Assembly (NCBI RefSeq): GCF_030717995.2 | Contig: NZ_CP157743.1 | Location: 3,312,501-3,376,500, forward strand | Source of the DNA: Methylomarinum sp. Ch1-1 | Lineage (GTDB): Bacteria > Pseudomonadota > Gammaproteobacteria > Methylococcales > Methylomonadaceae | DNA length: 64,000 nucleotides | Direction: 5' to 3' | In this document: in pieces, positions 28,862 to 52,041 of the stretch | How the letters are laid out: every line of letters starts with the position of its first letter | How positions within the stretch are numbered: position 1 is the stretch's first letter | The notes under the pieces: model-generated | What the model was told of the DNA's origin: nothing | The model's input: the letters and a program-made list of their open reading frames with translations, nothing else | Database searches by the model: none | Made by a program: the position numbers and the translations under genes

Positions 28862-28871
28862 GAAACAGAAA

Positions 28872-29474: not shown

Positions 29475-29584
29475 TGCACTATTTGATGATGCATAACATT
29501 CAGCCCGCCATGGCGTGCTACCGCATCCGCTCCCGGCGGATGTCGGCATTTCCACCCTCCATGGCGGGCAGATGTCGCATCCAA

Positions 29585-29648
29585 CCCGGCGCCTAAATAC
29601 GGTAGGCTATTAGTTATGATTAATAATCTACGTAGTTTCAGGTAGCGG
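29585..29648 (+). repeat. Degenerate MITE-B-like sequence
   Basis: CGCCTAAATACGGTAGGCTATTAGTTATGAT resembles the MITE-B left half; the right repeat is degraded (GTTTCAGGTAGCGG). It lies in the noncoding gap before the oxidosqualene cyclase gene, close to its promoter. Confidence 0.5.
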
Positions 29649-29768
29649 ACAAACGTCGTTTTTAATGCAAGCAACAGACAGATAGAAAAGAATTGTTATA
29701 CTCTATGATTACGAATCCTTTAAGAACTGCGCCTCGCCTCATCAAGTAATACCCCCGTATCAGAAACT

Positions 29769-32015: not shown

Positions 32016-32176
32016 CTATTCAGTATAAAAATGCTTTTACTATCAATTGCTTGCGGAAGAAGTGTATGCGACAGGGATGTCGCATCCAAGCCTATAGGGA
32101 CATATCCACGGCGTCTTCTGGAGCAAGTAACTGATAGTAAAAGAAATATTTTCTCAGTATCAAGCTGAATAGTTAC
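32012..32176 (+). mobile_element. MITE-C copy 2 (165 bp) overlapping the cyclase stop codon
   Basis: The ends GTAACTATTCAG and CTGAATAGTTAC are flanked by the 8-bp direct repeat GCTGATAA (32004-32011 and 32177-32184). The interior (TCAATTGCTTGCGGAAGAAG, ATGTCGCATCCAAGCCTATA, ACGGCGTCTTCTGGAGCAAG) matches the 51004 copy, here without MITE-B. Confidence 0.92.
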
Positions 32177-32233
32177 GCTGATAATTAATAACCCACGGAA
32201 GACCTTTAGAGGATGTGCTTTAAGTAGCTCAAT

Positions 32234-33634
32234 ATGAAATCAGAGTTCGATATTTGTATTATCGGCGCAGGCATGGCAGGCGCAACAATCGCCGCTTATC
32301 TCGCCCCCAGAGGCATTCGGATCGCGCTGATCGATCAAAGTTACGACGAGAAAAAACGTATCGTCGGTGAATTGCTGCAACCAGGAGCCGTATTAACGCT
32401 GGAGCAGCTGGGGCTGAAGCATCTACTGGATGGATTCGAGGCTCAGCCGGTCGCAGGATATGCCTTATTACAGGGCGACGAAAAAACCACCATTGCTTAT
32501 CCGCCTTCACATAACGGAATGGGCTTGCATAATGGCCGCTTTTTGCAACGAATCAGGGCTTCCGCCCTACAGAACGACACGGTCACGCAAATACACGGCA
32601 AGGCCCTGCGATTACTGGAAAACGACCGACATGAAATCATAGGTGTCAGTTACCGGGATTCCCTTTCTTCACAAATCCATTCCGTTTACGCCCCTTTAAC
32701 CATAACCAGCGACGGGTTCTTTTCCAATTTTAGAGAGCATCTCAGCAATAATGAAAAAACCGTAACTTCTTATTTTATCGGTTTGATTCTTAAAGATTGC
32801 GAAATGCCCTTCCCCAACCACGGACATGTATTTTTATCGGGACCGACTCCCTTTATTTGCTATCCGATTTCCAACAATGAAGTCAGATTGTTAATCGATT
32901 TCCCCGGCCAACAGACGCCGCGAAAAGTGCTGCTGCAACAGCATTTGGATACCAATGTCACGCCTTATATCCCCAAATCCATGCTGAAAAGCTACGAACA
33001 GTCTTTGCGACAGGGCGGTTTCAAGGTCATGCCCAACCATTATTTGGCGGCCAATCCTAAAATCCGCAAAGGGGCCGTGATGCTAGGGGATGCGCTCAAT
33101 ATGCGCCACCCCCTGACCGGTGGAGGGCTGACGGCGGTATTTTCCGATATTCAGATTTTGAGCGCCTATTTATTGGCTATGCCCGATTTTTCCAATACCG
33201 ATTTGATTCATACAAAGATCGAATCCTATTACCGGGACAGACAGAGAGCCAATGCCAACCTCAATATACTGGCCAACGCACTCTATGCCGTGATGTCCAA
33301 TGAACTACTGAAACTGGCAGTCTTTAAATACCTTCAGTGTGGCGGAAACAACGCCCAGGAGTCGATCGCCATTTTGGCGGGATTGAACAGGAGTCATTCC
33401 GTATTATTCAAGCAATTTTGTTTTTTGGCGATGTTCGGCGCCTGTAATTTGGTGCGTCAAAACGTTTTGAATTTACCCAAGGCCCTAAAACTGCTTACCG
33501 ATGCCTTCTGCATCATTAAGCCATTGATCAAAAACGAACTTCCCACAGTGTCACTTTTTTATCATAATCTCGCGAGAATAAAGACGCATATGCTTTCATA
33601 TTTAAATAATGGCTCCAAAATTCAAAGACCCTAG
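32234..33634 (+). CDS. sqmo: Squalene monooxygenase (squalene epoxidase)
   Basis: A 466-residue FAD monooxygenase making (S)-2,3-oxidosqualene from squalene with O2, the committed oxygen-requiring step of sterol synthesis. Motifs: N-terminal FAD site CIIGAGMAGATIAAYLA (GxGxxG at about 11-16), the squalene-epoxidase block VGELLQPGAVLTLEQLGL, and the second FAD motif LGDALNMRHPLTGGGLTAVFSD. A hydrophobic C-terminal half anchors it in the membrane. It follows the cyclase; only the MITE-C separates them, so cotranscription may have been affected by that insertion. A reductase partner is not encoded nearby. Confidence 0.95.
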   Translation: MKSEFDICIIGAGMAGATIAAYLAPRGIRIALIDQSYDEKKRIVGELLQPGAVLTLEQLGLKHLLDGFEAQPVAGYALLQGDEKTTIAYPPSHNGMGLHNGRFLQRIRASALQNDTVTQIHGKALRLLENDRHEIIGVSYRDSLSSQIHSVYAPLTITSDGFFSNFREHLSNNEKTVTSYFIGLILKDCEMPFPNHGHVFLSGPTPFICYPISNNEVRLLIDFPGQQTPRKVLLQQHLDTNVTPYIPKSMLKSYEQSLRQGGFKVMPNHYLAANPKIRKGAVMLGDALNMRHPLTGGGLTAVFSDIQILSAYLLAMPDFSNTDLIHTKIESYYRDRQRANANLNILANALYAVMSNELLKLAVFKYLQCGGNNAQESIAILAGLNRSHSVLFKQFCFLAMFGACNLVRQNVLNLPKALKLLTDAFCIIKPLIKNELPTVSLFYHNLARIKTHMLSYLNNGSKIQRP

Positions 33635-33716
33635 CTCTGAGACAGGTTTCGCTTTGCTCTAACTATTCAAGATACAAACGCTTTTTGATCTATTGAGATT
33701 CTATTTAATAACAGAC

Positions 33717-33761
33717 GTAACTATTCAGTATCTTTCAGGGTTTAGGGAGTAGACCAAGAAT
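33717..33761 (-). repeat. Truncated MITE-C end
   Basis: GTAACTATTCAGTATCTTTC and the following GTTTAGGGAGTAGACC match the reverse complement of the right end of the 43063 copy. The other end is missing. A shorter CTAACTATTCAAGATAC lies at about 33658. Confidence 0.65.
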
Positions 33762-33769
33762 TAGGCTAG

Positions 33770-33841
33770 CCGCCTACCGAATTAGTCCAGATGGTGCGGG
33801 AAGCCTACGAAGATTTTGTGCGCAGAGGCATGATTTTCTAA
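33770..33841 (+). pseudogene. Short gene-end remnant before the Rieske fragment
   Basis: The frame PPTELVQMVREAYEDFVRR then GMIF-stop has a protein-like composition but no start. It directly abuts the truncated MITE-C, so an element-associated deletion may have removed the rest of the gene. I do not recognise the family. Confidence 0.3.
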
Positions 33842-33883
33842 AACCCGTGCTCCCTCTCCTAACCATCAACCGAAGCTCAAAAG

Positions 33884-34315
33884 ATGAACAACGCACAACT
33901 GAAATATTCCCCCCCAACCTTTGCGAACGCCAAGAACCCACGGCAAAAAGCCCGCGCCTCCGGCTTGGACCCGAATCGTTGCTACGGGGTGGAATACGAC
34001 AATGCGATCAAAAAAGGCCCAATAAAAGAGGTGACTTTTTGGAAGACATCGATCGCCCTTTGCCGGGGCAAGAATGACGAACTCGCGGCGGAGCAAAACC
34101 GCTGCCCGTATCGCCAGCTCAACCTGACACATGGCGCAGTTGACCGGTGCAATCTGCGTTGCGCCTACCATGGCGGGTCTTTCAACCGGGGAGGCAGGCT
34201 AGAAGACTACTCCCATGACAGCTTTGGCAAACCGCTGATCAAAAGACAATGGCGAACCTATCCGATGCAGGTCCGCTATGGTTTGATATTGATCACCAGA
34301 GTTCCCGGCAAATGA
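33884..34315 (+). pseudogene. sdmA: Decayed Rieske oxygenase (SdmA-like) fragment
   Basis: 143 codons containing one Rieske-type domain, NRCPYRQLNLTHG..LRCAYHGGSF. The canonical 2Fe-2S motif is C-x-H..C-x2-H. Here the first histidine is replaced by tyrosine (CPY), while the second half CAYH is kept. The whole C-terminal catalytic domain with the mononuclear iron site (about 200 or more residues) is absent, since the next gene starts at its stop (ATGA). In Methylococcus, the Rieske protein SdmA with reductase SdmB removes one C-4 methyl from sterols. Position and domain suggest a dead sdmA; an alternative is a shortened Rieske ferredoxin-like protein, which the lost histidine makes unlikely. 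Confidence 0.6.
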
Positions 34316-37026
34316 AAATCACGCAGCGAATGGCCAAACTAGCGGAATATTTCGCTCTGCATCCAAGATGGGTTTTAGGGCTGACCCTGGTGTTGACGAT
34401 CATTGCCGGCTGGGCCGCTCAACAACTCCCGATTCATACCTCGCGTCAAGCGCTACTTCCCCAGAATACGGAGGTCGCGCAACGCTTCAACGATTTCTTG
34501 CAGAATTTCGGCGCCGCTTCGGATCTGATCGTCGTTTTGGAAGGCGCTCCACGCAGCGAACTGGAGTCCTTTGCCAACGATCTGGCCGCCAGGCTTAGAG
34601 CCGAACCCGAGATTGGACGGGCGACCTCCCGTCTCGACATGACATTTTTTCTGAACCATGCCTACCTGTTGCTGCCGAACGAAGGGCTGGATAAACTATC
34701 GGCCCTCGCTAACAACCCCATTGCGATCGACGGGGGATTGGAACATAACCTGGAAAAAGCCCTGAACTGGAGCCGAAAAAATTCTCCATCGGTGGGAACG
34801 GACATCGAGCTACAGACCGCCGAGGCCGGCCTGAACCTGGCCACGTTTTTCCTGGAACAATGGCGGCGCTGGTTATTCGCCGAAACAGTTCCTGAAGACC
34901 TGGACTGGAACCGGCTATTGGAAAAAAGTAGCGTGGGTGGCATGACCGACGGCTACTTTGCTTCACACGATGGTGGGATGCTGTTTGTTTTCGTCCACCC
35001 GAAAAACGCTTCCGGCAATTTCGAGCATTTGGGCCCCTTCGTCGATAAGGTCAAGCGGGTATCGGCGAACTTGATCGATCTAAGCCAAACCGCCGGCCAT
35101 ACTCCACCGACCGTTGGCTTGACCGGACTGCCGGCGCTCGAATATGAGGAATATGTCAACATTCGCCAGGATATCAAGTTCGTGACCATAACCTCCGCCA
35201 GCCTGGTCGCCATGTTGATTTTACTGGTAGTACGCAGCCTGCGCTGGGCCGCGCTCATTTTCATTCCGATGGGAATCGGCGTCCTGTGGAGCCTGGGCCT
35301 GGCACTGATCAGCGTCGGCCATCTGAATATGATCACCGCGGCCTTCATCGCCATTCTGTTCGGTCTGGGGGCGGATTACGGCATTTTCACCACCTCACGC
35401 ATCGCCGAGGAGCGCCGAGCAGGCAAACCCTTGCTGGAAGCGATCGGAGCCGGGATCGGTTCCTCTTTCACTGCGGTGTTGACGGCGGGCGGTGCTTCGC
35501 TACTGATCTTCGGCGCCCTCAGCACGGTCGATTTTCCAGGCTTCTCCGAACTGGGCATCATAGCGGCTTGCGGCGTGCTGATGATCCTGCTCAGCACTTG
35601 GCTGGTTCAGCCCGCGCTCTACGCCCTGTTGCCGCCAAAACTCAGAGTCGACTCCTCGCCAAAACCGGGTCTCTCCCCCGCTGCGTCGACCAAAAGCCTT
35701 ACCGGGTTTCCCAAGTTGCTCTCCTTAACCCTTGTCATACTGGCCATAGGTACTGCTGTCTTCGGCGGACTGAAAGGGTTCGCGGCCGATTTCGACTACG
35801 ACGTGCTGGCGATGTTACCCGAAGATTCCCAGGCGGCCTATTATCAACGGCGCATGGTTGAAGAGAGCGACATTCAACCCGAGGTCATTATTTTTACCGC
35901 ACAAGACATGGACGAGGCTCGACGAATCAATCGTGAGGCAGGTAAGCTGAAGACGATTGCGCAGACGCAATCTTTGACCGGCCTTTTTCCCGAGGATGCC
36001 GACCATCGGCTTCGGCAGGCCGAGAGTATCGGTGAGACGTTCTCCCGGAGCGATTACCGCAAGCAACTCGCCGAACTGGAGCACGAAGGCCTGTCGTCAA
36101 CATCATTCGAGTTAGTGAAGGCGATATTGGCGAACAGCACCACTATCATCGATCAGGCTCAGGAACAGGCATTCTCAGCGGGCCATGTCAGCCTGGTCGA
36201 GAGCTTGGAGAACATACGCGAGCAGTTGCGGGCGATAGCGGCTCAACTCAAGTCCGACGACCCATTGAGCCGGGCGCGCAGCGAGAGTTTTTTACGCGCC
36301 TTGATATCGGGCGCAAATGACGGACTCGATATCGTCGACCAATGGCATCAGGCGCGGCCGCTGATTCCGGAGAAGTTGCCGCCGGCCTTGCGTGAGCGTT
36401 TCTTTGCCAACGATGGCACTATCGCGGTTTACGCCTTTCCGGCAAAAACCGTATACGACCCCGACAACCTGGATGCTCTAATACAAGACGTCTATAGCAT
36501 TTCTCCGCATGCGACCGGCTTTCCGACCACGCAACAGGCCTTTGCCAAAGCCATGGTGGCAAGTTTTTCCCGCGGGACGCAATTATCGCTGGCGCTTTGT
36601 CTGCTTTGGGTCATGGCGGCAACACGCAGTCCGCTCGGGTTTACGCTGGCGGCACTCCCCCTGCTGATCGGCGGCGGTTGGATGCTGGGACTGATGGCTC
36701 TAAGCGGCATACGATATAATTATGCCAACATTGTTGCCCTGCCTTTGGTGATGGCGCTGGCTGTCGATTACGGTGTGTGGTTCAGCTATCGTTGGCGCGA
36801 ATTGAAGTTACATTCACCGTTTCAGGTCAGTCTGACTGTCGGCAAGGCCATCGGCCTGGCTGCCGGCACGTCATTGGCCGGCCTCGGCGCCATCACGTTG
36901 GCCAGCTATCGAGGCGTATCCTCGCTGGGCATGAGCGTCACGATCGGATTATTATGCTGTCTGACCGCAACCCTCGTCGTGAATCCAGCCATCGGACAAT
37001 TACTAGACTACAAGAGAAATAGATAA
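34312..37026 (+). CDS. bstA: RND-superfamily sterol transporter BstA (MMPL/HpnN-like)
   Basis: A 904-residue inner-membrane RND transporter of the HpnN/MMPL type. It has an N-terminal helix, a periplasmic loop of about 220 residues, a block of five to six helices (VTITSASLVAMLILLVVRSL ... ALISVGHLNMITAAF), then the same arrangement duplicated in the second half. Charged residues in the central helices (GLGADYGIFTTSR and ALAVDYGVWFSYRWRE) are the probable proton-relay sites. ATG 34312 overlaps the Rieske stop and opens on the first helix; a longer start at 34249 lies inside that gene. In Methylococcus, BstA moves C-4-modified sterols from the inner membrane to BstB. It is cotranscribed with bstB and bstC. 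Confidence 0.9.
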   Translation: MKITQRMAKLAEYFALHPRWVLGLTLVLTIIAGWAAQQLPIHTSRQALLPQNTEVAQRFNDFLQNFGAASDLIVVLEGAPRSELESFANDLAARLRAEPEIGRATSRLDMTFFLNHAYLLLPNEGLDKLSALANNPIAIDGGLEHNLEKALNWSRKNSPSVGTDIELQTAEAGLNLATFFLEQWRRWLFAETVPEDLDWNRLLEKSSVGGMTDGYFASHDGGMLFVFVHPKNASGNFEHLGPFVDKVKRVSANLIDLSQTAGHTPPTVGLTGLPALEYEEYVNIRQDIKFVTITSASLVAMLILLVVRSLRWAALIFIPMGIGVLWSLGLALISVGHLNMITAAFIAILFGLGADYGIFTTSRIAEERRAGKPLLEAIGAGIGSSFTAVLTAGGASLLIFGALSTVDFPGFSELGIIAACGVLMILLSTWLVQPALYALLPPKLRVDSSPKPGLSPAASTKSLTGFPKLLSLTLVILAIGTAVFGGLKGFAADFDYDVLAMLPEDSQAAYYQRRMVEESDIQPEVIIFTAQDMDEARRINREAGKLKTIAQTQSLTGLFPEDADHRLRQAESIGETFSRSDYRKQLAELEHEGLSSTSFELVKAILANSTTIIDQAQEQAFSAGHVSLVESLENIREQLRAIAAQLKSDDPLSRARSESFLRALISGANDGLDIVDQWHQARPLIPEKLPPALRERFFANDGTIAVYAFPAKTVYDPDNLDALIQDVYSISPHATGFPTTQQAFAKAMVASFSRGTQLSLALCLLWVMAATRSPLGFTLAALPLLIGGGWMLGLMALSGIRYNYANIVALPLVMALAVDYGVWFSYRWRELKLHSPFQVSLTVGKAIGLAAGTSLAGLGAITLASYRGVSSLGMSVTIGLLCCLTATLVVNPAIGQLLDYKRNR

Positions 37027-39122: not shown

Positions 39123-39505
39123 GTTTAGGGTGTGTTAAATAGCCCGCCCCGTGCGCATTGAATGCTTTTAGCCGATCCGCTGCGCGTGATCCATCTCACG
39201 GATGTGGGTAGGGTGTGCTGACGAGAGGAAGCGCACCATTTTTGATGCGCTTCACGCTGTTCAGCACATCCGAAGGCAAGGCTACATTGGCATGCAACAG
39301 GATTCGCCGCCAGGGAATCCACCTGGATTCGCACAACGGCCAATTTTGCCCCGGTGGCGGTTTTTGGCGGCTTGCTTCGCGAAGCCGCCCTACGATACGC
39401 TAGGGTGTGCTGACGAGAGGAAGCGCGCCGGTTTTTGATGCGTTTCACGCTGTTCGGTACATCCGAAGGCAAGTCAGTGCTTTGCATAGGAGCGTCGCCT
39501 TGGAG
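39123..39505 (+). repeat. REP1 composite, copy 2
   Basis: Contains REP1 hairpins at 39212-39271 and 39404-39464, separated by the same CTACATTGGCATGCAAC, CCAGG..CCTGGAT and GCTTGCTTCGCGAAGCC blocks as at 2510-2820. It is preceded by GGGTGTGTTAAATAGCCCGCCCCG, which also appears (reversed) at 18045. Confidence 0.8.
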
Positions 39506-40279: not shown

Positions 40280-40777
40280 TTAATCGTCGTCCTGATCCGG
40301 CAATACTATGCTCGCCTCGGATTGTTGATGAAGATCGGAATCAGTGAAGGTTCTTATATCGCAGCAAAACTCAATCTGGAGATTATTCGGATCAAGCAAG
40401 AAGATTGATTTTGCATGTCCAAGATCGATCACCTGAGAAACATCTATCCCCTGGTCTTCCAGCTTATTGCGCATTTTTTCGAGGCCGTCGAGGGTATGAA
40501 TCTTCAGGGCGAAATGATACATGCCGCCCGGCAACCCAAGCGCGCCGTTGATTCCGGTATCATATTCCGCCGGAATGCCCGAGATTTCTTTCGGCTCCAT
40601 GAAAACAATGAACTGTTGATCGCCCACTTCAAAATAGGCTTGGCGCAACATACCTCCTTCTTTGATTCGGGTCTTATGCTCGGCGACAAGGGGGAAACCG
40701 AGCACATTCTTATAGAATTGAATCGTGGCATCCATATCGAGCGTTGATAAACCGACGTGTGAAAATCCGCTGCCCAT
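40280..40777 (-). CDS. VOC-superfamily (glyoxalase/dioxygenase-like) protein
   Basis: A 165-residue protein with two beta-alpha-beta-beta-beta repeats. The first begins FSHVGLSTLDMDATIQFYKNVLGF and the second MYHFALKIHTLDGLEKMRNKL. Candidate metal ligands are His in SHVGL, His in MYHFAL and Glu in LQIEFCC, the usual vicinal-oxygen-chelate set. The C-terminus has a hydrophilic tail ending DDD. The family covers isomerases, dioxygenases and resistance proteins that sequester small molecules. It lies downstream of the GMC oxidoreductase on the same strand, 139 bp away, at the end of the putative RiPP locus, so tailoring or self-protection is possible but unproven. Confidence 0.78.
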   Translation of the reverse strand: MGSGFSHVGLSTLDMDATIQFYKNVLGFPLVAEHKTRIKEGGMLRQAYFEVGDQQFIVFMEPKEISGIPAEYDTGINGALGLPGGMYHFALKIHTLDGLEKMRNKLEDQGIDVSQVIDLGHAKSIFLLDPNNLQIEFCCDIRTFTDSDLHQQSEASIVLPDQDDD

Positions 40778-40915
40778 TACCCTACCTCTCTGTTTGCTTT
40801 TTAAAAACTACCAAATTTCATTTCCGAGTTCAACTTGAAGTTCCAATTATCAGCAATGTTCAATTTGAGAATCGAAAGGGTGAGGGAAAGGATTTTCAGC
40901 TACTTGAAGTCCTAT

Positions 40916-42343
40916 TCATCCACCGCGAACCTGCTCAAGCTTCGTGCGTATATGATCAGCTAAGCGGAGAGTCAACGCAATAAGGGTAAATGTTGGATTA
41001 GCCCAGCTAGCACTCGGAAACACGCTGCCACCAGCAATATAAATGTTGCTGTAATCGTGCATCCGACTATTAGAGTCAACGACGCCATCGGCTTTATTCC
41101 TGGACATGCGTGTGGTGCCGAGATGATGATTCGAATGGAGTAATAAGCTATCATCGCGATCGATCAGATGGATAGTATCCCGCACCTTGCCGACATTAAT
41201 ACGCTCAAATTCGCGGCTTAAATAATTCGCCGTCTTTTCGTATGACTTCCAATCAAGTTCCGTGAGCCGCCAATCCAGGCGGACCCGACGCATTCCCAGG
41301 GAATCCGTTCGATCAGACAGGGTAAGCCGGCTGTTCGGATTGGGCGCTTGCTCCAAAAACATACCAACCTTCGGCGTTTCGTCGTCACTCATACTTGGCG
41401 TCCGATATATATGAGCACGAGCATTCAAAATTTGCGCTTCTTTCTGTATTCGTTCCGACAGCCCTACGCACAACAAAAACTGTTTTTCTTCGTCGAAATA
41501 CCCTCGTTCGAGCCAATTCTTGAATAAACCGACTCTTTCCACGGTCAACGCGCTAATAGACAGATGCGGATGTTCCATGAAGTTTCGTCCCACCCAGTCG
41601 TTGGCGTTACCCAGTCCGTGGCAAACTTGGGTATCCGAATTAAGCAGAATGCGCGCTGTCTCGATGCCACCGCACGCCAAAACAAAGATGTCGGCTGAAA
41701 TATGGCCTTCTCGCCCACTCAAGGTGCGTATTTTGAGCGTTGAGGCCATGCTGTGTTCAGCGTCTAGCCGAATATCAACGACATTCGCATGGGTCAACGT
41801 TATCACATTCTTCGATGTATCGAAGTGATCCCGATGGTGTTCGCTAATTCTCACGGTTGGCGTCCCAAACCGCCAAACAGTGGGGATGACAATCTCATTA
41901 TCGAAAGGAAGTTGGATTTCAGCGCGTCTCGCAATATCTCGAGGGTCAAAATTAAGATCGTCGATATTTAGTAATTTGGCGGTTTTTTCATAATAAGGTT
42001 TAATGGCTTCCACCCCGAATGGCCAACCACTGCCGGGAACCCATTCACGATGAGTGAAGTCATGAGAATCGAAAACAGCGCAATATCCTGCCCATAGTGC
42101 GGAAGACCCGCCGAATTGACGTGTGCGTGTTTCAGTCAGCGGGTAGTCGATGCCCACACATTCACCGATTTGCAGCGCCTGCAGGTCTGCATCGACTTCA
42201 AATCCGCCGCTTTCGATAACAAGCACCGGACCCAAATCGGCCAATTCATTCGCCAAAGTCAGTCCCGCAGGCCCCGCCCCAACGATAGCTATCTGAACCG
42301 ACCGATTCAAATTCACTTTTTCATCTCGAGAATCAAGGATCAT
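40916..42343 (-). CDS. GMC-family FAD-dependent oxidoreductase
   Basis: A 475-residue flavoprotein. It has an N-terminal ADP-binding fold IAIVGAGPAGLTLANEL (GxGxxG at 22-27), the family block QFGGSSALWAGYC, a central CGGIETARILL, and the GMC C-terminal catalytic region HHLGTTRM and SWANPTFTLIALTLRLADH, providing the usual His and Asn. Members oxidise alcohols (glucose, choline, sugars, hydroxyl groups on natural products). It is divergent from the 2OG oxygenase gene (105-bp gap), suggesting shared regulation. Its codon use is more AT-rich than the housekeeping genes, as in the rest of this locus. Substrate unknown; acting on the modified peptide is a hypothesis. Confidence 0.85.
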   Translation of the reverse strand: MILDSRDEKVNLNRSVQIAIVGAGPAGLTLANELADLGPVLVIESGGFEVDADLQALQIGECVGIDYPLTETRTRQFGGSSALWAGYCAVFDSHDFTHREWVPGSGWPFGVEAIKPYYEKTAKLLNIDDLNFDPRDIARRAEIQLPFDNEIVIPTVWRFGTPTVRISEHHRDHFDTSKNVITLTHANVVDIRLDAEHSMASTLKIRTLSGREGHISADIFVLACGGIETARILLNSDTQVCHGLGNANDWVGRNFMEHPHLSISALTVERVGLFKNWLERGYFDEEKQFLLCVGLSERIQKEAQILNARAHIYRTPSMSDDETPKVGMFLEQAPNPNSRLTLSDRTDSLGMRRVRLDWRLTELDWKSYEKTANYLSREFERINVGKVRDTIHLIDRDDSLLLHSNHHLGTTRMSRNKADGVVDSNSRMHDYSNIYIAGGSVFPSASWANPTFTLIALTLRLADHIRTKLEQVRGG

Positions 42344-42447
42344 GTCAAATACATTCGTTCTTGTTATTATTGAATTTTAAGCCCGATTGCACCAAACTTT
42401 GAGCGACTATCATAGATATTACTTAATAACTTGAGAACCATGCCATC

Positions 42448-43047
42448 ATGATTATTCCGCGAGGCCAACTCACATCATTAAAGTCGGACATTGTTAATAT
42501 CGGATTTGCGTCTATAGAAAACTCAATAAATGATGCCTTATTTGTAGCGCTCCGAGAGGAAGCTTTAGCTCAAAAATCACGAGCTCGCCGCGCAGTCGAC
42601 AATGGTTCGGTTTCCTATAGGGGGCAACTGGCTGACCTTGGAGAAGTTGCGAGAGCTTTTTTGACTAGTCATCCATTTGCTGAATTTTTACGGTCAATCT
42701 TTGCTCAACGTTTCATTCTCTCCGAGGAATCAAGTTGTTACACTTACTATGGGACTGGCGATTTCTTAAGCCCGCATCGAGACGTTGCGGATGATTGCCT
42801 AGCGACAGTCTTAGTGTATTTAGAGGCCACCTCCCCAGATCCGAATAAGCTCGACACGGGGTTAGTGTTGAAAATATACGAAGACGGTGTTGGAAAACCG
42901 GCTAATCTCCGACATATGATCAAGACACGCAACGGTTTAGTCGTTGTGGGCCGCGGTTCAGCAGTATGGCATGGTCGGCCACCGCTGCTTGCTGGCGAAC
43001 AAGTGGTTGTTTTGACCGCATGTTTTTCAGCATGCGCCTTGATCTAA
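42448..43047 (+). CDS. 2OG-Fe(II) oxygenase (prolyl-hydroxylase-like)
   Basis: A 199-residue non-haem iron dioxygenase-like protein. The core YTYYGTGDFLSPHRDVADDC contains the HxD pair (His110, Asp112), and the distal histidine is likely His175 in AVWHGRPPL. The double-stranded beta-helix context (ATVLVYLEAT, GLVVVGRGSAVWHG) fits the family. A clear arginine for 2-oxoglutarate is not obvious after the distal His, so the cosubstrate is less certain. Such enzymes hydroxylate peptides, amino acids or small molecules. It is divergent from the GMC gene and convergent with the arginase-like gene; a MITE-C lies just behind its stop. Confidence 0.75.
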   Translation: MIIPRGQLTSLKSDIVNIGFASIENSINDALFVALREEALAQKSRARRAVDNGSVSYRGQLADLGEVARAFLTSHPFAEFLRSIFAQRFILSEESSCYTYYGTGDFLSPHRDVADDCLATVLVYLEATSPDPNKLDTGLVLKIYEDGVGKPANLRHMIKTRNGLVVVGRGSAVWHGRPPLLAGEQVVVLTACFSACALI

Positions 43048-43062
43048 TAATAAAGATTTTAC

Positions 43063-43220
43063 GTAATTATTCAGCGTAGTTTTACTAAGAGGGAGTAGGT
43101 TATTGATTTATCGGGCTGTCTGCAACAGGACGTTGCAGTCAGAGCTTACATGGATGTATTCACGCGTCCCGAGAAATCAATGACCTACTGCCTAAAACCC
43201 GAAAGATACTGAATAGTTAC
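43063..43220 (+). mobile_element. MITE-C copy 3 (158 bp, second interior type)
   Basis: The ends GTAATTATTCAG and CTGAATAGTTAC are flanked by the 8-bp direct repeat GATTTTAC (43055-43062 and 43221-43228). Its interior is the type seen at 2877, here uninterrupted (TTATTGATTTATCGGGCTGT), and provides the empty site for MITE-A. It lies between the 2OG oxygenase and arginase-like genes. Confidence 0.92.
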
Positions 43221-43268
43221 GATTTTACAAATTTCAAAACCTTAGTCTGATTACCTACCCATTTTCAT

Positions 43269-44264
43269 TTATTTGATTCTGTCCTCTATTTCTGTTAAAA
43301 GCCAATCCCAATGATATGCCGAGCAAAATCCGGGAGAAGTCGCTATTATCCAATGGTCCACACGAACCTGCATCGCGTGTAAAGCGTCAAAAAATCGTTC
43401 CAATTTTTGGATCACTTGATATTTCAAGTCGTGATTGGGAAAATGAAAAGCTGTTCCGACATTACCGTTGAAATCATTGATAAAGTAGTCGAGGTCAATG
43501 TGCACGATGACCTGACCTTCAGGGGTGCTTGCCAGCACTTTATCGACGTTGTTCCCACCTCGATACGTTCCCGCGCTATTCTGCCAATCTGAATTTGCCA
43601 GACGAATTGCGGCAAATTGTTTATTGGGAATGAGCTCATAGCAGTAGTTCTCTTGAATCACGTTGTATAAGTCATAGGTACTGCTCGCACTATTATTTAG
43701 ATGCCTTACATGAACTTTATGATCGGAGTAGTACAGCGGCGTGATAAAGCTTCCTATGCCGATACAGCCCGAATATATAGCAGACTCCCAATCATTACGA
43801 ACTGAAGGATCAAATGATTTGCCCGTTGATGGATCCGTCAATCCTTCTCCGGTACGTTCAAGCAACGTCGACATCATATCGGTATGATCATCCAGATGGA
43901 TGAGAACTAAGTCATCCGCACGATCATTTCTACCTAAATGGTCGGCCAAGAAGTAGCCTGACCAAGAATCCTCAAAACACAAATCAAATGATGCCCTTCT
44001 TGATCGATAGTCGAGAATATCCCCTAAGAGCATGCCTTTTTTATACTTGCCCAAGGCCTTAGAAAGATACGGATCAATCGTGTGATAATACATATCTGGA
44101 CCCAGCATGCGGAAACCTAACTCGTTTTCGAGCAATTCGAACTCGACATTGCGAACGATGCTTCGAATTTTTCTCACGGTCTCTCCAGCACCATGACTTA
44201 ATAAGAAGGATCTGTCGATAGGAATCGTATTAATGGCATCAGATGGACGATTGAGAAATCTCAT
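43269..44264 (-). CDS. UPF0489 / peptide-arginase-like metallohydrolase
   Basis: A protein of about 331 residues with the ureohydrolase (arginase) metal motifs: HLDDHTDMM (about 123-131) and HIDLDYF (about 260), corresponding to the DxHxD and DxD manganese ligands. This pattern fits UPF0489, the family of the peptide arginase OspR, which converts arginine in RiPP precursors to ornithine with release of urea. It lies directly downstream of the radical SAM gene, and the precursor ends in two arginines, so the context fits. ATG 44264 is used; an in-frame TTG at 44291 is an alternative. A tiny overlapping frame in front (ending at the ATGA) might couple translation. Activity is inferred. Confidence 0.75.
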   Translation of the reverse strand: MRFLNRPSDAINTIPIDRSFLLSHGAGETVRKIRSIVRNVEFELLENELGFRMLGPDMYYHTIDPYLSKALGKYKKGMLLGDILDYRSRRASFDLCFEDSWSGYFLADHLGRNDRADDLVLIHLDDHTDMMSTLLERTGEGLTDPSTGKSFDPSVRNDWESAIYSGCIGIGSFITPLYYSDHKVHVRHLNNSASSTYDLYNVIQENYCYELIPNKQFAAIRLANSDWQNSAGTYRGGNNVDKVLASTPEGQVIVHIDLDYFINDFNGNVGTAFHFPNHDLKYQVIQKLERFFDALHAMQVRVDHWIIATSPGFCSAYHWDWLLTEIEDRIK

Positions 44265-44464
44265 GAGAGAGGCACCGATGTTGCAAAACAATGAAGCGTT
44301 TTCATACTTGTGATATTTAGACGGGGGCCGAAACCATCATACCTCTGGCTTAGATTCCTCAGGCGCCCTACGAGTAAATCAACAGAATTTGATATGTCTA
44401 CATTTTCATTCTTCTCCAAGTCGTAATTAGATGAAGATTCTCAACCAAAACAGGATTAAAAGGC

Positions 44465-45673
44465 TTAGTTGCTTTCGTTTAAGTGACTCAATAGTGTATT
44501 CGCAAAGGTCTTGACATGAATAAGGCATTCCGGGGTTTGGGCCACGTTAAATCTCTCAAATCTTCTGAATTTAATCAGATTGTAACCGCCGGAACAGAGA
44601 TTAAAATACTCGCATCCAGCTTCGCAAGCTCGGTGGCTTGCTTCGAAATCACTTGCTATTTTTTGAAGCTTGGTCGAATTAGCAATTTCATCAAGACTTG
44701 CATTCAATACATTGCCAACCACCAACCCTTTGCCGTCGCCATACAAATCCTTAAGGTCTTTGCACTCGTCTACCGTCAATCCGGCATAGAAAGTCGTGAG
44801 ATCGCCATTTGCTTCGATACTCAATGTTTTAAACGGCTTACTCATGCTGCGAGCATCATATTTCTGACGTCCATTCGCTTCCCCGAATAGCATATTGTAG
44901 AAAATCGAAAAATTTCGGATTTGTGGAAATTTCTTGTTTTCGTGCTTTGAGATTTCATTCAATAGCGAACGCAAGAACAAGTCATACTTGTTTGCATACG
45001 ACTCAATTTTTTTGCTGTCTTCACTATCTATAAAAATTTCGTCGTGAAGATTGAAATGAAATTCACGAATATACTTCGAGAATCGTGAGAAATACTCTAA
45101 AAATTCGACCGGATGCTCCAAGCTTTCTGGCGAAACCACCGCGATTACATCGAAGTCAATACCGTTTTCGCATAATAGCTGCATTCCCTGCTGAGTTAAG
45201 GTGTGTGAGGGTTTCCCCGACCAGTTTTTTCGGTACAAATCATGAAGAGACGCCGGGCCGTCACAACTAACCCCAATTGTCAAAAGCTCACCATACTCAT
45301 TGATGAGATCACACCACTCTTGATTGATCAGTGTGCCATTAGTCTGAATATCGAAGCGTATATTAAAATCTGATAAACAGTAATAATCCCTTATTTTCAA
45401 GATGCGCTCAATCGCTTCTCGATAATAAGAGGGTTTTAATATAAGTGGTTCACCGGAATGCCAACTCACGCGCAATGTCTTGTCAACATAACGACTAGAT
45501 AACAACTTTTCGAATATAGTTTCAATGGTGGATATAGCCATCGCCGATTTATTTCGGCGGCTTTCTTCTGATAGGTAACAATACGAACAATTTAAATTAC
45601 AAAAGGATGTGCTCTGAAGAACCACCATTTCTACAGGGCCAACCGGGATATTGCCTTCACTGAGCCTATTCAT
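44465..45673 (-). CDS. Radical SAM/SPASM peptide maturase
   Basis: A 402-residue radical SAM enzyme. The 4Fe-4S site CNLNCSYC (Cys25, Cys29, Cys32) is at the N-terminus, as usual for the peptide-crosslinking class, followed by the SAM-contact stretch VSWHSGEPLIL and DIQTNGTLI. The C-terminus has the SPASM-like cysteine cluster CEAGCEYFNLCSGG plus a later Cys (TPECL), which holds auxiliary clusters. This layout is typical of cyclophane- or thioether-forming RiPP maturases (for example XyeB- and GrrM-like groups). The 55-residue precursor gene lies 228 bp upstream on the same strand. An AT-rich gene. The exact crosslink cannot be read from sequence. Confidence 0.88.
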   Translation of the reverse strand: MNRLSEGNIPVGPVEMVVLQSTSFCNLNCSYCYLSEESRRNKSAMAISTIETIFEKLLSSRYVDKTLRVSWHSGEPLILKPSYYREAIERILKIRDYYCLSDFNIRFDIQTNGTLINQEWCDLINEYGELLTIGVSCDGPASLHDLYRKNWSGKPSHTLTQQGMQLLCENGIDFDVIAVVSPESLEHPVEFLEYFSRFSKYIREFHFNLHDEIFIDSEDSKKIESYANKYDLFLRSLLNEISKHENKKFPQIRNFSIFYNMLFGEANGRQKYDARSMSKPFKTLSIEANGDLTTFYAGLTVDECKDLKDLYGDGKGLVVGNVLNASLDEIANSTKLQKIASDFEASHRACEAGCEYFNLCSGGYNLIKFRRFERFNVAQTPECLIHVKTFANTLLSHLNESN

Positions 45674-45711
45674 TTTATTTCGTAGATTCTATTGATAACG
45701 TAGCCGGACGG

Positions 45712-45746
45712 CCATTTGAAACTGGAGACGATCCGAGTTCCAAATG
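45712..45746 (-). terminator. Hairpin between precursor and radical SAM gene (proximal)
   Basis: On the minus strand CCATTTGGAACT and AGTTTCAAATGG pair with one mismatch around an 11-nt loop. It sits 39 bp before the radical SAM start. It could attenuate transcription or define an mRNA processing end, keeping the precursor in excess over the enzyme. There is no strong U-run. Confidence 0.45.
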
Positions 45747-45810
45747 GCGATTAGATACGAAAATACATTTCTATCGAATGATTATGACAAACGCTTGGGA
45801 ACATCCCGGA

Positions 45811-45899
45811 AAATGAAAGCGTCAAGCGGGCTTGATTGAGCCCTCTCCCATTAGGGGCGCCTTGAAACTTTTATCGTAAAAACGCTTGACGTGCGCGTC
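45811..45899 (-). other. Long-range inverted repeat after the precursor stop
   Basis: GCGTCAAGCG on one side and CGCTTGACG on the other enclose a second hairpin, GGGCTTGATTGAGCCC, giving a cruciform-like structure within 90 bp directly after the precursor stop. A probable transcript-end or stability element; the GCTTGACGTG piece also occurs near 27041, so it may derive from a dispersed repeat. Confidence 0.45.
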
Positions 45900-45901
45900 A
45901 G

Positions 45902-46069
45902 CTATCGACGCATCATCGGTCCCCACGAAGCCGCACAAGTAGATTTTACTTCCTCGGCCCCTGAGACGGCTAACGGTCCATAGTGCTTGAGTTTCCCTTT
46001 TATATGTGCTGACTTAGCTTTAGAAACGGCAGTTGAGATATCGAAGCATTGAACGTTTTGAATAGTCAT
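45902..46069 (-). CDS. Putative RiPP precursor peptide (55 aa)
   Basis: A short gene with a near-ideal AAGGAG site 5 bp before ATG. The peptide begins MTIQNVQCFDISTAVSKAKS, has a charged helical leader (AHIKGKLKHYGPLAVSG) and a C-terminal segment AEEVKSTCAASWGPMMRR. Leader-core architecture, small size and the position directly upstream of a radical SAM/SPASM maturase on the same strand mark it as the substrate. The core probably starts after the SGAEE region. Trp49 is the likely aromatic partner for a radical-SAM crosslink, and Arg54-Arg55 are the likely arginase targets. Cys45 could also be modified. There is no signal peptide. I inferred this gene from both frame and ribosome site. Family: resembles, but is not proven to be, the XYE-type precursors. 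Confidence 0.78.
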   Translation of the reverse strand: MTIQNVQCFDISTAVSKAKSAHIKGKLKHYGPLAVSGAEEVKSTCAASWGPMMRR

Positions 46070-46102
46070 ATTGGCTCCTTAATATTTGTACTGTAAGCAT
46101 GA

Positions 46103-46128
46103 TAAGAAGTGAATTAATTCACTTCTTA
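46103..46128. promoter_or_regulatory. 26-bp perfect palindrome upstream of the RiPP precursor
   Basis: TAAGAAGTGAATT followed directly by its exact reverse complement, with no spacer. It lies 34 bp upstream of the precursor ATG, between ATG and the probable promoter. Length and perfect symmetry fit an operator for a dimeric repressor (MarR/TetR/Xre type) or a 5'-UTR hairpin. No regulator gene is found next to the locus. The remaining sequence 46129-46294 shows nothing recognisable. Confidence 0.6.
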
Positions 46129-46304
46129 CTAGATTTTTAGCATATAAAAGTTTAACTCGCAACGGCTTAATGACTGAATTCGCAATCCAGCCTACAATCA
46201 AGCTTATGCGGCTTTGAGCAAATGCTCATGACAAGTGATTACAGTAATTCAATGACTGTAGCCTCGAAAATTTTTGTCGTGTACAAAGGTCAGCCAATTA
46301 ACAC

Positions 46305-46530
46305 CAGCAATTCATCAGTTTGAGTATTTTTGCGGGGTTTAGGGCATGGGGTGTGTCTGTCGAGGAGCGCCGTTCACCCAGCACCTAAATAAACGACGAT
46401 AATAAATCATAGCCAATAGTCTATGGTATTTAGGTGCTGGGTAAACCCATCCCTGGGGGCTTGACGGCAGCATCCTTGCTGCCGACATCCTCGCCAAACA
46501 CACCCCATGCCCTTTTTGAACGCCAAAGTG
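46305..46530 (-). mobile_element. MITE-A copy 4, left part (interrupted by IS1111-type element)
   Basis: Reverse-oriented MITE-A that also carries MITE-B. Its other end, GGAATTGCTG, is at 48000-48009, beyond the inserted IS. The outer duplication is CAATTAACAC (46295-46304 and 48010-48019), 9-10 bp. The IS split the terminal repeat between CCAAAGTG and GGAATTGCTG. Confidence 0.9.
46377..46441 (-). mobile_element. MITE-B copy 2 nested in MITE-A
   Basis: Reverse complement of the 23399-23463 element at exactly the same position within MITE-A. This shows that the MITE-A/MITE-B composite has itself transposed as a unit. Confidence 0.88.
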
Positions 46531-46611
46531 ATGATATGGACTCCTCTCCACCCTCTAACGGTGTCACAATACACCTACTAACAACTTAAACAGAACAAAG
46601 AGGAGTTCGAG

Positions 46612-47625
46612 ATGAATCTTAACGTAGTGGGTTTAGATATTGCAAAACTAGTGTTTCATATGTTCATGATGCAAGACGGCAAAGCAAAGAAAAAGAAATT
46701 GAAACGGTCGGAACTGTTGGCCTTTGTGGCTCAGATGCCGGTGAGCGTGATCGCGATGGAAGCCTGCGGCGGCGCTCATCATTGGGCCCGGGCATTTCAG
46801 GCCCTGGGCCACGAAGTAGTGCTGTTGAATACTCGCTTCGTGAAGGCATTCGTGGTTGGCAATAAAAACGATTACAACGACGCCGAGGCGATTTACACGG
46901 CGGCCTGCCAGCCGAACAAACGCAGCGTGGCGATCAAAGGCATTGAGCAGCAAGACTTAGCCATGCTGCAAGGTGTCCGGCGAGGTAAGGTGGACGAACG
47001 CACGGCCTTGGTCAATCAAATGCGCGGTTATCTGGCTGAACGAGGCATCGTGCTGCCGCGTAGCGTGAATCAGTTCAGAAAACAACTGCCCAGTATTCTG
47101 GAGGACGGGGAAAATGACCTCAGCACGCTGAGCCGGAAGCTGTTTGCCGAGCAGTATCAAGCGCTGAAAGCCTTGGACGAAGCGATCCGGGCTCTGGACC
47201 GGGAAATTACGGCAGTATGCCAAAACAATGCCTTAGCCCGACGATTGCTTGACATACCGGGTATCGGTCCTTTGACCGCCATTTTGGCCACGGCTGACGT
47301 CGGCGATGGCAAGGGTTATGATTCGAGCCGAGATTACGCGGCCAGCTTGGGCGTGGTGCCAAGGCAGCACAGCAGCGGCGATAAGCAGGTATTACTGGGC
47401 ATCAGTAAACGCGGCAACCGCCAATTGCGCACATCCTTGATTCACGGGGCAAGAGCGGTGCTGAAATACTGCGGTGACAAGAGCGACCCCTTGAGCCTGT
47501 GGCTCAAAGGCTTGATTGAACGGCGAGGCTTCAACAAAGCGGCCGTGGCTTTGGCCAACAAGAACGCCCGGATCATTTGGGCGCTGGCAACGCGTGGCGG
47601 CGATTACGTGCCACAAATGGCCTAA
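46612..47625 (+). CDS. IS110/IS1111-group DEDD transposase
   Basis: A 337-residue serine-assisted DEDD recombinase. The N-terminal RuvC-like domain starts VVGLDIAK, with the first Asp, then MEACGGAHHWAR (Glu) and KNDYNDAEAIYTA (Asp-Asp). The C-terminal transposase_20 domain carries LLDIPGIGPLTAILATADVGDGKGYDSSRDYAASLGVVPRQHSSG-type sequence, including the Tnp20 helix-hairpin and the conserved serine region (GISKRGNRQLRTSLIHGARA). Ribosome site AGAGGAG precedes the ATG. The gene is intact, so the element may be active. IS110 enzymes use an element-encoded bridge RNA to choose the target. Confidence 0.95.
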   Translation: MNLNVVGLDIAKLVFHMFMMQDGKAKKKKLKRSELLAFVAQMPVSVIAMEACGGAHHWARAFQALGHEVVLLNTRFVKAFVVGNKNDYNDAEAIYTAACQPNKRSVAIKGIEQQDLAMLQGVRRGKVDERTALVNQMRGYLAERGIVLPRSVNQFRKQLPSILEDGENDLSTLSRKLFAEQYQALKALDEAIRALDREITAVCQNNALARRLLDIPGIGPLTAILATADVGDGKGYDSSRDYAASLGVVPRQHSSGDKQVLLGISKRGNRQLRTSLIHGARAVLKYCGDKSDPLSLWLKGLIERRGFNKAAVALANKNARIIWALATRGGDYVPQMA

Positions 47626-47999
47626 GCCGATGAAAACCGGGTTATCCACCCTTTGCCCACAAGCTCCGAGCACGATTGAAGGGCTCTACGCATGTGGACA
47701 AAGCGTGGATAACCCTAACAACACTGTAGTAAACGAGTTCAACCAAATTGCGGAGGCAAGACTCTCAAAGTGATGACATTCAACAGGTCAGACCGGCGCT
47801 TTTAAAATCCGTTATTCCCGAAGATTCCTTGAAATCGGCAAAGTGATAGAGATAAAAGCGCGCGGATAGCTTCATCAGGGCCCGAAGGTCGATAAATACC
47901 TTCATCAAGAGGCCGAATATATGGCGGCAATCTCGATCTCTGTTGGAAACATCATTTTTGAACAATCTTGGCTTGCAATTGGAGAGGAGTCCATATATG
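47626..47999 (+). ncRNA. Candidate bridge RNA region at the right end of the IS1111 element
   Basis: 374 noncoding bases after the transposase stop. The most obvious structure is a strong stem between GTTATCCACCCTTTGCCCAC (47641 on) and GTGGACAAAGCGTGGATAAC (47694-47713). CAAAGTG, identical to the base run left of the insertion site, occurs twice farther on (47766-47772 and 47839-47845), in positions that could be guide loops. IS1111-group elements encode their bridge RNA on this side. The stem arms also resemble DnaA boxes (TTATCCAC). The RNA boundaries cannot be set by eye. Confidence 0.45.
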
Positions 48000-48091
48000 G
48001 GAATTGCTGCAATTAACACTCGACTTTGAGGCTATATTCCAATTTAGGTTACACTTAAGCGGTAATTTTGTTTGCAACCGGGAAACCGTAA

Positions 48092-49195
48092 ATGTCGGAT
48101 ATTTATATTTTTGGGTCTGGATATAAAGCGCAATTAATATTAACTTGGTTAACGGATCATGGCGACCTTTCCAGAGATCACATTTCCGGCATTATTGATT
48201 ATCCCGAATTCTTAAATGATGTAGACACTGAGATCCTCGGCGTTCCGGTCACGTCTTATAACGACATTAAAGGGCGACTTTGCAAAAATGATATCTTTAT
48301 AATTGTCAGCCGATTATTTAACGAGGCGATTGCTGAGCTTTTTTCGCAAAATTTTTATAACGTTTTCGACGGCGAAGCTGTCATTCAGCGTGAAAACAAG
48401 ATTCAAAAGTTTTTGAACATCGCGTCAGATCTTTATATCGGCCCCTCCCCCCCTAAAACGTGCGAATCTGAAAATCATAATTATCTCAGGTATATTGCAA
48501 AACCATTAGAGGCAAACAAAGTGCCAATGCACAAACTCTTTATTGTAAATAGCATCCCCAAATCTGGAACAGTCTGGATGATGGCGATGCTTGAAAGAGT
48601 GTTGGGAGTAAGAGCAAATCAGCAAATCACGTTATCACACCTTCGAGATATAGAAGTTGACTGGCCAAAACCAAACAATCACGGCGCGGTGGTGCTGGTC
48701 CGCGATATGCGAGACGTCGTGGTTTCGTGGTTTCACCACCTAAGCCGCGTTGATCTGCAGAACGGATTTTCTTCACCCCGCTACCCCAATGTAGAGGATT
48801 TTTACTTCGAGCACTTTATCGCCCAACTATTTGGCAGCTCCCGCTACTATTTTGGCGAACTTGAAAAATGGTTGGATTTTGTTGGCGCCAACAGTTTCCC
48901 CGTCATCAAATATGAAGACTTAGTCTCCGATACCTCGGCATCCCTTCGGAAAGTTATGAATTTTTGGAAAATCAGCGTTCCAGACCAGGCGCTTTTCGAT
49001 ATTGCGCAAGAACATTCATTCGGTAATATGCAGAAAAATTTCTTTGATCAAGAAGGATTCGTTGCCGACATGTTGAAAACCGGCCACCTGCGCAGTGGCC
49101 GTGTTGGTGCATGGGAGGAGGAAATGCCTACACGAGTGGCAGAAGATATCAATCGGAGATTTTTTGGTTACCAGCGCCGCTTGCAATACCTATAA
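48092..49195 (+). CDS. Sulfotransferase-domain protein with N-terminal nucleotide-binding-like domain
   Basis: A 367-residue protein. The C-terminal two thirds is a PAPS-dependent sulfotransferase: the 5'-phosphosulfate loop IPKSGTVWMM (Lys157) and the 3'-phosphate site VRDMRDVVVSWFHHL, followed by YEDLV and the PAPS-binding-like LRSGRVGAWEEEM near the C-terminus. The N-terminal 110 residues (MSDIYIFGSGYKAQLILTWL) resemble the PglD-type acyltransferase N-terminal Rossmann-like domain. The combination suggests sulfation of a glycan or other surface or small-molecule acceptor. It stands alone after the IS1111 element. A link with the RiPP locus on the other side of the IS is possible but unsupported. 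Confidence 0.82.
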   Translation: MSDIYIFGSGYKAQLILTWLTDHGDLSRDHISGIIDYPEFLNDVDTEILGVPVTSYNDIKGRLCKNDIFIIVSRLFNEAIAELFSQNFYNVFDGEAVIQRENKIQKFLNIASDLYIGPSPPKTCESENHNYLRYIAKPLEANKVPMHKLFIVNSIPKSGTVWMMAMLERVLGVRANQQITLSHLRDIEVDWPKPNNHGAVVLVRDMRDVVVSWFHHLSRVDLQNGFSSPRYPNVEDFYFEHFIAQLFGSSRYYFGELEKWLDFVGANSFPVIKYEDLVSDTSASLRKVMNFWKISVPDQALFDIAQEHSFGNMQKNFFDQEGFVADMLKTGHLRSGRVGAWEEEMPTRVAEDINRRFFGYQRRLQYL

Positions 49196-51003: not shown

Positions 51004-51237
51004 GTAACTATTCAGCTTGATACTGAGAAAATATTTCTTTTACTATCAATTGCTTGTGGAAGAAGTGTATGCGACAGGGATGTCGCATCCAAGCCTATAG
51101 GGACATATTGACCCAACACCTAAATTCCATAGGCTAATGGCTGCGATAAATCATCTTCGTTTATTTAGGTGCTGGGTGAACGGCGTCTTCTGGAGCAAGT
51201 AACTGATAGTAAATGCATTTTTATACTGAATAGTTAC
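51004..51237 (+). mobile_element. MITE-C copy 4 (234 bp) carrying MITE-B
   Basis: The ends GTAACTATTCAG and CTGAATAGTTAC are flanked by the 8-bp direct repeat ATTCAGAT (50996-51003 and 51238-51245). The interior matches the 32012 copy, but MITE-B is inserted before ACGGCGTC. The two outer arms are exchanged relative to 32012, while the interior keeps its direction. It lies in the promoter region of herA. Confidence 0.92.
51112..51176 (+). mobile_element. MITE-B copy 3 nested in MITE-C
   Basis: A 65-bp element with ends CCCAACACCTAAAT and ATTTAGGTGCTGGG. The empty site in the 32012 MITE-C reads GACATATCCACGGCG. The right flank GAACGGCG is the same as for the copies inside MITE-A, suggesting target preference. 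Confidence 0.85.
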
Positions 51238-51829: not shown

Positions 51830-52041
51830 TGGGAGCGCCGCCCTCGGCGCGAGGCGAGGGTTCAATATCGGATAACTTTTTTGACGGATCCACGATGCTT
51901 GATCCGTCCTACGAACTGCGGGTGGGGTGTGCTGACGACAGGAAGCACACCGGTTTTTGATGCGCTTCACGCTGTTCAGCATATCCTAGAGTAGTTGACG
52001 TAGGAGCGCCGCCCTCGGCGCGGGAAAAAAGGGGATTGTCC
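51830..52041 (+). repeat. REP1-type repeat and CGCC hairpins
   Basis: One REP1 hairpin (51925-51986: GGTGTGCTGACG..TTCAGCATATCC) between two GAGCGCCGCCCTCGGCGCG palindromes (51832 and 52004). The same modules are found at 2510-2820. It fills the gap after feoC. Confidence 0.75.

What the first reader, a model, noticed from the sequence alone, without database searches (positions are those of the whole stretch)
43269..46069. Probable RiPP locus: 55-aa precursor, radical SAM/SPASM maturase and peptide-arginase-like enzyme
Seen: a 55-codon gene with an AAGGAG ribosome site lies directly upstream of a radical SAM gene (CNLNCSYC, SPASM-like CEAGCEYFNLC), followed by a UPF0489-like gene with DDHTD and HIDLDYF metal motifs, all on the minus strand. 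Known: radical SAM/SPASM enzymes crosslink RiPP precursors, and UPF0489 includes peptide arginases that make ornithine. Inference: the product is a crosslinked, ornithine-containing peptide. I do not recall this combination from a methanotroph.
Basis: partly seen in the sequence, partly recalled or inferred. Interest (0 to 1): 0.93.

Follow-up and report, generated by a model that had tools for sequence, protein, structure and literature searches.

The report
New cyclophane-type RiPP gene cluster

Summary
In detail: a 55-aa precursor gene, a radical SAM/SPASM gene and an arginase-like gene lie in that order on the minus strand. The interpretation largely holds and can be extended. Four other genomes (Zobellella, Caballeronia, Variovorax, Paraburkholderia) carry a homologous precursor directly before a 52-64% identical radical SAM gene; all five precursors end in SWGP[MA]M[RK][RK]. 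The radical SAM proteins form one clade (100/100) inside a GrrM/OscB-like group, apart from sulfatase maturases. The third protein keeps all six predicted metal ligands, and its family profile finds one solved structure only, the peptide arginase OspR. The cluster is larger than reported: Zobellella has a seven-gene block that adds a sulfotransferase, GMC oxidoreductase, VOC protein and 2OG-Fe(II) oxygenase; all seven have counterparts in the window (40280-49195), rearranged, with an IS110 element between precursor and sulfotransferase. Arginase-like relatives also sit in all five plasmid-borne yhhAB cyclophane clusters found, where YhhB is known to crosslink onto Arg. Radical SAM plus peptide arginase is not new as a pairing; the precursor family, enzyme set and arginase subfamily appear to be. 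The chemistry (Trp-Gly-Pro crosslink, Arg to Orn, sulfation) is inferred, not shown.

The parts
45902..46069 (-). precursor peptide gene, 55 aa (MTIQNVQCFDISTAVSKAKSAHIKGKLKHYGPLAVSGAEEVKSTCAASWGPMMRR)
   Evidence: Shine-Dalgarno aaggag; homologues upstream of radical SAM genes in four genomes; invariant SWGP, Y-x-P-L, ST
44465..45673 (-). radical SAM/SPASM peptide maturase, GrrM/OscB-like
   Evidence: TIGR04261 293 bits; PF04055 and PF13186; clade tree
43269..44264 (-). peptide-arginase-like protein (UPF0489/ureohydrolase relative)
   Evidence: invariant DxHxD, H188, HIDLDYF; PF12640 matched by all five family members, below the curated cut-off for the window protein; profile hit to 8BRP only
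42448..43047 (+). 2OG-Fe(II) oxygenase-like protein
   Evidence: HRD...HxR motif invariant in four clusters; PF13640/PF13661 below cut-off; orthologues in L002, L003, L005
40916..42343 (-). GMC-family flavoprotein oxidoreductase
   Evidence: PF05199 73 bits; orthologue in all five clusters, 45-55% identity
40280..40777 (-). VOC/glyoxalase-fold protein
   Evidence: PF00903 51 bits; orthologue in all five clusters, 48-62% identity
48092..49195 (+). sulfotransferase-domain protein, 367 aa, inferred part of the cluster
   Evidence: PF00685 82 bits; 47% identical over full length to the gene that lies between arginase and GMC in the Zobellella block
46612..47625 (+). IS110-family transposase that separates the sulfotransferase gene from the precursor gene; not part of the pathway
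   Evidence: PF01548/PF02371; 17-nt inverted repeats 46534-46550 and 47980-47996 read

Best explanation
The seven genes make one RiPP of a family I call SWGP. Shown by sequence: a precursor with a conserved Y-x-P-L motif and an invariant C-terminal SWGP, always beside a GrrM/OscB-like radical SAM enzyme, a GMC flavoprotein and a VOC protein, usually with a 2OG-Fe(II) oxygenase. Inferred: the radical SAM enzyme binds the leader and makes an i/i+2 carbon-carbon crosslink from Trp49, most simply to the beta-carbon of Pro51, giving a three-residue cyclophane. The oxygenase and the GMC enzyme (with the VOC protein) then oxidise the core further. In the two gammaproteobacterial versions the arginase-like enzyme converts Arg54 and/or Arg55 to ornithine and the sulfotransferase adds sulfate to a hydroxyl group of the peptide. 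No dedicated protease or exporter was identified in the window's cluster, so removal of the leader would be by host functions. The activity of the product is unknown. The confidence given is for a RiPP with a radical SAM-made crosslink and an arginase-type tailoring step; the exact Trp-Pro bond is less sure (see rivals).
For: Precursor homologues beside radical SAM homologues in five genomes of five genera, with the C-terminal end strongly conserved. Radical SAM best match GrrM/OscB by 97 bits over the next model; OscB crosslinks Trp C7 to the beta-carbon of residue i+2 (PMC11002830). The only aromatic residue of the C-terminal part is invariant Trp49, in Trp-Gly-Pro. Arginase family: six ligand positions invariant in five relatives, OspR the only PDB profile hit, all five members match UPF0489. 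Contiguous same-strand block in Zobellella holds all seven genes. The arginase relatives also accompany YhhA/YhhB in 5 of 5 plasmids, whose core carries YDR/HHR/HNR and whose enzyme crosslinks onto Arg: an independent link between this arginase family and Arg-containing cyclophane peptides.
Against: No product or activity data. The radical SAM protein is below the curated GrrM cut-off (293 vs 310 bits). Pro at i+2 is not among the crosslinked residues listed in the review read here (Asn, Asp, Arg, Ser, Ala). The second peptide-arginase motif, EEH(N/H)EAF, is absent and replaced by a VRHL segment. Caballeronia has a core ending in RR but no arginase, so Arg presence and arginase do not track one to one. 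Structure predictions of the arginase were too poor to use (mean pLDDT 51 and 41), and the Foldseek search with the first found no significant match.
Confidence: 0.7

Rival explanations
1. RiPP, but the radical SAM enzyme makes something other than a Trp-Pro cyclophane: for example a Trp crosslink to Met52/Met53, a Tyr30-centred crosslink, or an epimerisation, with a multi-step oxidation by GMC, VOC and 2OG enzymes.
For: Met53 and the Tyr30-x-Pro32-Leu33 motif are also invariant; Tyr30 is likewise in an aromatic-X-Pro setting; the SWGP clade is distinct from named GrrM members.
Against: The characterised triceptide relatives described in PMC11002830 make i/i+2 cyclophanes.
Confidence: 0.35
2. 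The arginase-like protein is not an arginase acting on the peptide but another ureohydrolase-type hydrolase (for instance agmatinase-like or acting on a different guanidine or amide).
For: Motif 2 of peptide arginases is missing; scores to PF12640 and NF052474 are below cut-off; Caballeronia keeps RR without it.
Against: Full set of metal ligands; the only PDB profile hit is a peptide arginase; the same family beside YhhA/YhhB, whose product has crosslinked Arg.
Confidence: 0.2
3. A RiPP-derived redox cofactor in the style of mycofactocin or PQQ, in which the GMC and VOC proteins use or build the cofactor rather than tailor a secreted peptide.
For: GMC and VOC are part of the most conserved set; the GMC protein has weak matches to the mycofactocin enzyme MftG and to pyranose oxidase.
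Against: No mycofactocin- or PQQ-type companion genes were seen in the clusters; the distribution is very sporadic, unlike a cofactor; arginase and sulfotransferase are unusual for a cofactor.
Confidence: 0.1
4. The peptide is a signal or effector of a conflict system, sensed or guarded by the neighbouring TIR/NB-ARC proteins.
For: In Caballeronia and Paraburkholderia the precursor is divergent from 36% identical NB-ARC-TPR-TIR proteins, and the Variovorax locus has a TIR protein upstream; FxSxx peptide/radical SAM systems are coupled to TIR AP-ATPases (PMC7159879).
Against: The window's genome and Zobellella lack the NB-ARC-TPR-TIR homologue; the Variovorax protein is of a different architecture; islands collect unrelated genes.
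Confidence: 0.15

Closest known systems
GrrM/OscB three-residue cyclophane (triceptide) maturases, TIGR04261
   Same: radical SAM/SPASM domain; small precursor gene directly upstream; best profile match; groups with GrrM-like proteins in the tree
   Different: below the curated cut-off; precursor has one SWGP end instead of Gly-rich repeats; extra GMC, VOC, 2OG, arginase and sulfotransferase genes
yhhA/yhhB cyclophane RiPP system
   Same: cyclophane-forming radical SAM plus the same arginase-like family (5 of 5 plasmids), oxidative tailoring
   Different: radical SAM protein is of the FxsB/YhhB branch fused to an HExxH hydroxylase; unrelated precursor (SYDRMHHRHNRS end); GNAT and glycosyltransferase instead of GMC/VOC/sulfotransferase
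Peptide arginases OspR, FlmR, OhkR, PbsE (PF12640, NF052474)
   Same: DxHxD and IDLDYF metal motifs; RiPP context; OspR is the only profile hit in the PDB
   Different: very distant (21.8 bits to NF052474, cut-off 350); lacks EEH(N/H)EAF
FxSxx-COOH radical SAM peptide systems with TIR AP-ATPases (PMC7159879)
   Same: radical SAM/SPASM-modified small peptide near a TIR-NB-ARC-TPR protein in Burkholderiales loci
   Different: different radical SAM branch and peptide; no such gene in the window's genome

Membership tests
RiPP biosynthetic cluster | small precursor gene conserved next to its modifying enzyme across genomes | tested here: met
   five genomes, same position, E 3e-14 to 3e-7
RiPP biosynthetic cluster | modified peptide product | not testable with these tools
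   needs expression and mass spectrometry
GrrM/OscB (TIGR04261) | score above the curated cut-off of 310 bits | tested here: not met
   293.4 bits (window), 288.4 bits (Zobellella); so a sister group, not filed as a member
GrrM/OscB (TIGR04261) | precursor with Gly-rich repeats and aromatic-X-Asn/Asp motifs | tested here: not met
   single SWGP[MA]M end
Triceptide / three-residue cyclophane forming enzymes | i to i+2 aromatic to beta-carbon crosslink | not testable with these tools
   sequence only; invariant Trp49-Gly50-Pro51 is the candidate
Radical SAM/SPASM | CxxxCxxC and SPASM cysteines | tested here: met
   PF04055 74 bits, PF13186 21.6 bits; cysteines invariant in five proteins
Anaerobic sulfatase maturase | best profile and tree position with anSME | tested here: not met
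   146 bits against cut-off 349; separate in the tree
Peptide arginase (PF12640) | DxHxD and LDIDLDYF metal motifs | tested here: met
   HLDDHTD and HIDLDYF, with D125, H127, D129, D257, D259 invariant
Peptide arginase (PF12640) | EEH(N/H)EAF motif | tested here: not met
   invariant VRHL (H188) in its place
Peptide arginase (PF12640) | score above the gathering cut-off of 27 bits | tested here: not met
   18.9 bits for the window protein; a distant relative rather than a member
Peptide arginase (PF12640) | Arg to Orn conversion on a peptide | not testable with these tools
   no assay

The most novel reading that the evidence does not exclude
The cluster makes a new RiPP class in which a radical SAM enzyme crosslinks Trp to Pro (Trp-Gly-Pro cyclophane), and a previously unrecognised branch of peptide arginases, shared with the yhh pathway, makes ornithine in crosslinked peptides, followed by GMC oxidation and sulfation; in Burkholderiales the peptide is tied to TIR/NB-ARC immunity.
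Probability: 0.2. Interest if true: 0.8.

Novelty: new variant of a known kind. Interest (0 to 1): 0.55.

Why it matters
It defines a small precursor family that none of the searched libraries covers, with a compact enzyme set ready for heterologous expression, and it predicts an unreported crosslink partner (Pro). It also suggests that the unannotated gene in yhhAB clusters is a peptide arginase, which would make the natural yhh products crosslinked ornithine peptides: a direct test on a pathway whose radical SAM step is already characterised.

Tried and rejected
Anaerobic sulfatase maturase: rejected on scores and tree. Chance small ORF: rejected. Chance co-location of GMC/VOC/2OG/sulfotransferase genes: rejected by the contiguous block in Zobellella. 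A methanotroph-wide system: rejected. Viral contigs hold no relative of the arginase. Plasmid search with the sulfotransferase: no match. More distant radical SAM relatives L006-L009 have no arginase nearby and no recognisable SWGP precursor. A possible attenuator between precursor and radical SAM gene does not fold clearly better than shuffles (z -1.36) and is not claimed.

Full report
Observation. The three genes are present as described: a 55-aa ORF at 45902-46069(-) behind an aaggag site, a radical SAM/SPASM gene at 44465-45673(-), and a gene with DDHTD and HIDLDYF motifs at 43269 to about 44264(-). The genome holds a strong match to the PmoA/AmoA family, so 'methanotroph' is plausible.

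The precursor is real. A scan of about 85,000 species genomes with the radical SAM protein gave four close relatives: Zobellella endophytica (L002, 64% identity), Paraburkholderia (L005, 54%), Caballeronia (L003, 52%) and Variovorax (L004, 52%). In each, a small frame just upstream matches the window's 55-aa ORF (E 3e-14, 2e-9, 9e-9, 3e-7). The five peptides share 14 invariant columns, including G-x-L-x-x-Y-x-P-L and S-T-x-x-x-S-W-G-P-x-M, and end in two basic residues.

The radical SAM enzyme. Best profile is GrrM/OscB, 293 bits against a cut-off of 310; next AmcB 196 and anaerobic sulfatase maturase 146. In a tree the five proteins form one group (100/100) inside a GrrM-like group (97/95), apart from sulfatase maturases, DarE and YhhB. 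OscB and its kin make i/i+2 bonds from an aromatic ring to a beta-carbon (PMC11002830). Trp49-Gly50-Pro51 is therefore the prime candidate; that Pro is the partner is inference.

The arginase-like protein. Single-sequence searches are weak (PF12640 18.9 bits, NF052474 21.8 bits). With four relatives, the DxHxD triad, one histidine (H188) and the two aspartates of HIDLDYF are invariant, a profile of the family finds one entry in the whole PDB, the peptide arginase OspR (8BRP, E 2.9e-5), and all five members match UPF0489. The second motif of known peptide arginases is absent. I therefore call it a distant relative that probably works like a peptide arginase, not a member.

An independent line. 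The only plasmid relatives lie on five records, and these are the same five that carry YhhB. The gene follows yhhB where annotated. YhhA ends in SYDRMHHRHNRS, and YhhB joins Tyr and His to the beta-carbon of Arg (PMC11002830). An arginase for crosslinked Arg would fit.

The cluster is larger. In Zobellella seven genes run head to tail: precursor, radical SAM, arginase, sulfotransferase, GMC, VOC, 2OG oxygenase. All seven have orthologues in the window between 40280 and 49195 (45-64% identity; precursor 56% over 43 residues), but the 2OG and sulfotransferase genes are inverted and an IS110 element with 17-nt inverted repeats lies between precursor and sulfotransferase. The Burkholderiales loci keep precursor, radical SAM, VOC and GMC, with the 2OG gene in two of three, and have no arginase match anywhere in the genome; no sulfotransferase orthologue was seen in the stretches read.

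Distribution. The arginase occurs in 1 of 151 genomes of the window's family and 1 of 369 of its class; the precursor in one genome each of the sampled genera, of the Zobellella family and of 398 genomes of the Caballeronia family (other hits being weak partial matches). This, with lower GC over 43-46 kb and interspersed repeats on both sides, suggests horizontal spread.

Prior knowledge. Peptide arginases occur with several precursor types and with radical SAM enzymes (PMC12703449; PMC12257519; NF052473/NF052474). Among the papers listed for the WGPMM string none held it, and none of the papers listed held 'GMC oxidoreductase' together with such peptides; subscription papers are mostly not in that library. 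The combination is thus a new variant of a known kind.

Uncertain. The chemistry of every step, the order of steps, the sulfation target, leader removal, export and biological role are inferred or unknown. In two Burkholderiales loci the precursor faces an NB-ARC-TPR-TIR gene, recalling FxSxx systems (PMC7159879), but the window's genome has no such homologue.

Noticed in passing
L021 5995-7002; L022 about 5896-7332; L023 about 5890-6840; L042 3863-4729: Unannotated peptide-arginase-like gene follows yhhB in cyclophane RiPP clusters on Novosphingobium and Rhizobium plasmids; the same five of five plasmid records hold both.
   Followed up: partly
L003 2160-5348, L005 2166-5354, L004 398-3748: TIR proteins (NB-ARC-TPR-TIR in two, TIR with an FGE-sulfatase domain in one) lie upstream of the Burkholderiales SWGP precursors.
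   Followed up: partly
window 27218-37026: Sterol-type gene block: P450 fused to a ferredoxin domain, oxidosqualene cyclase, squalene epoxidase, sterol transporter BstA.
   Followed up: no
window 39203-39473 and 51917-51995: Interspersed direct repeats about 12.5 kb apart on either side of the cluster.
   Followed up: no
window 46341-46513 and 51066-51185: Palindromic element (26-nt arms) beside the precursor gene, with a 120-nt inverted copy near 51.1 kb, 77% complementary.
   Followed up: no
L042 305-2646: An IS21 element splits yhhB from its HExxH part on the Rhizobium L51/94 plasmid.
   Followed up: no
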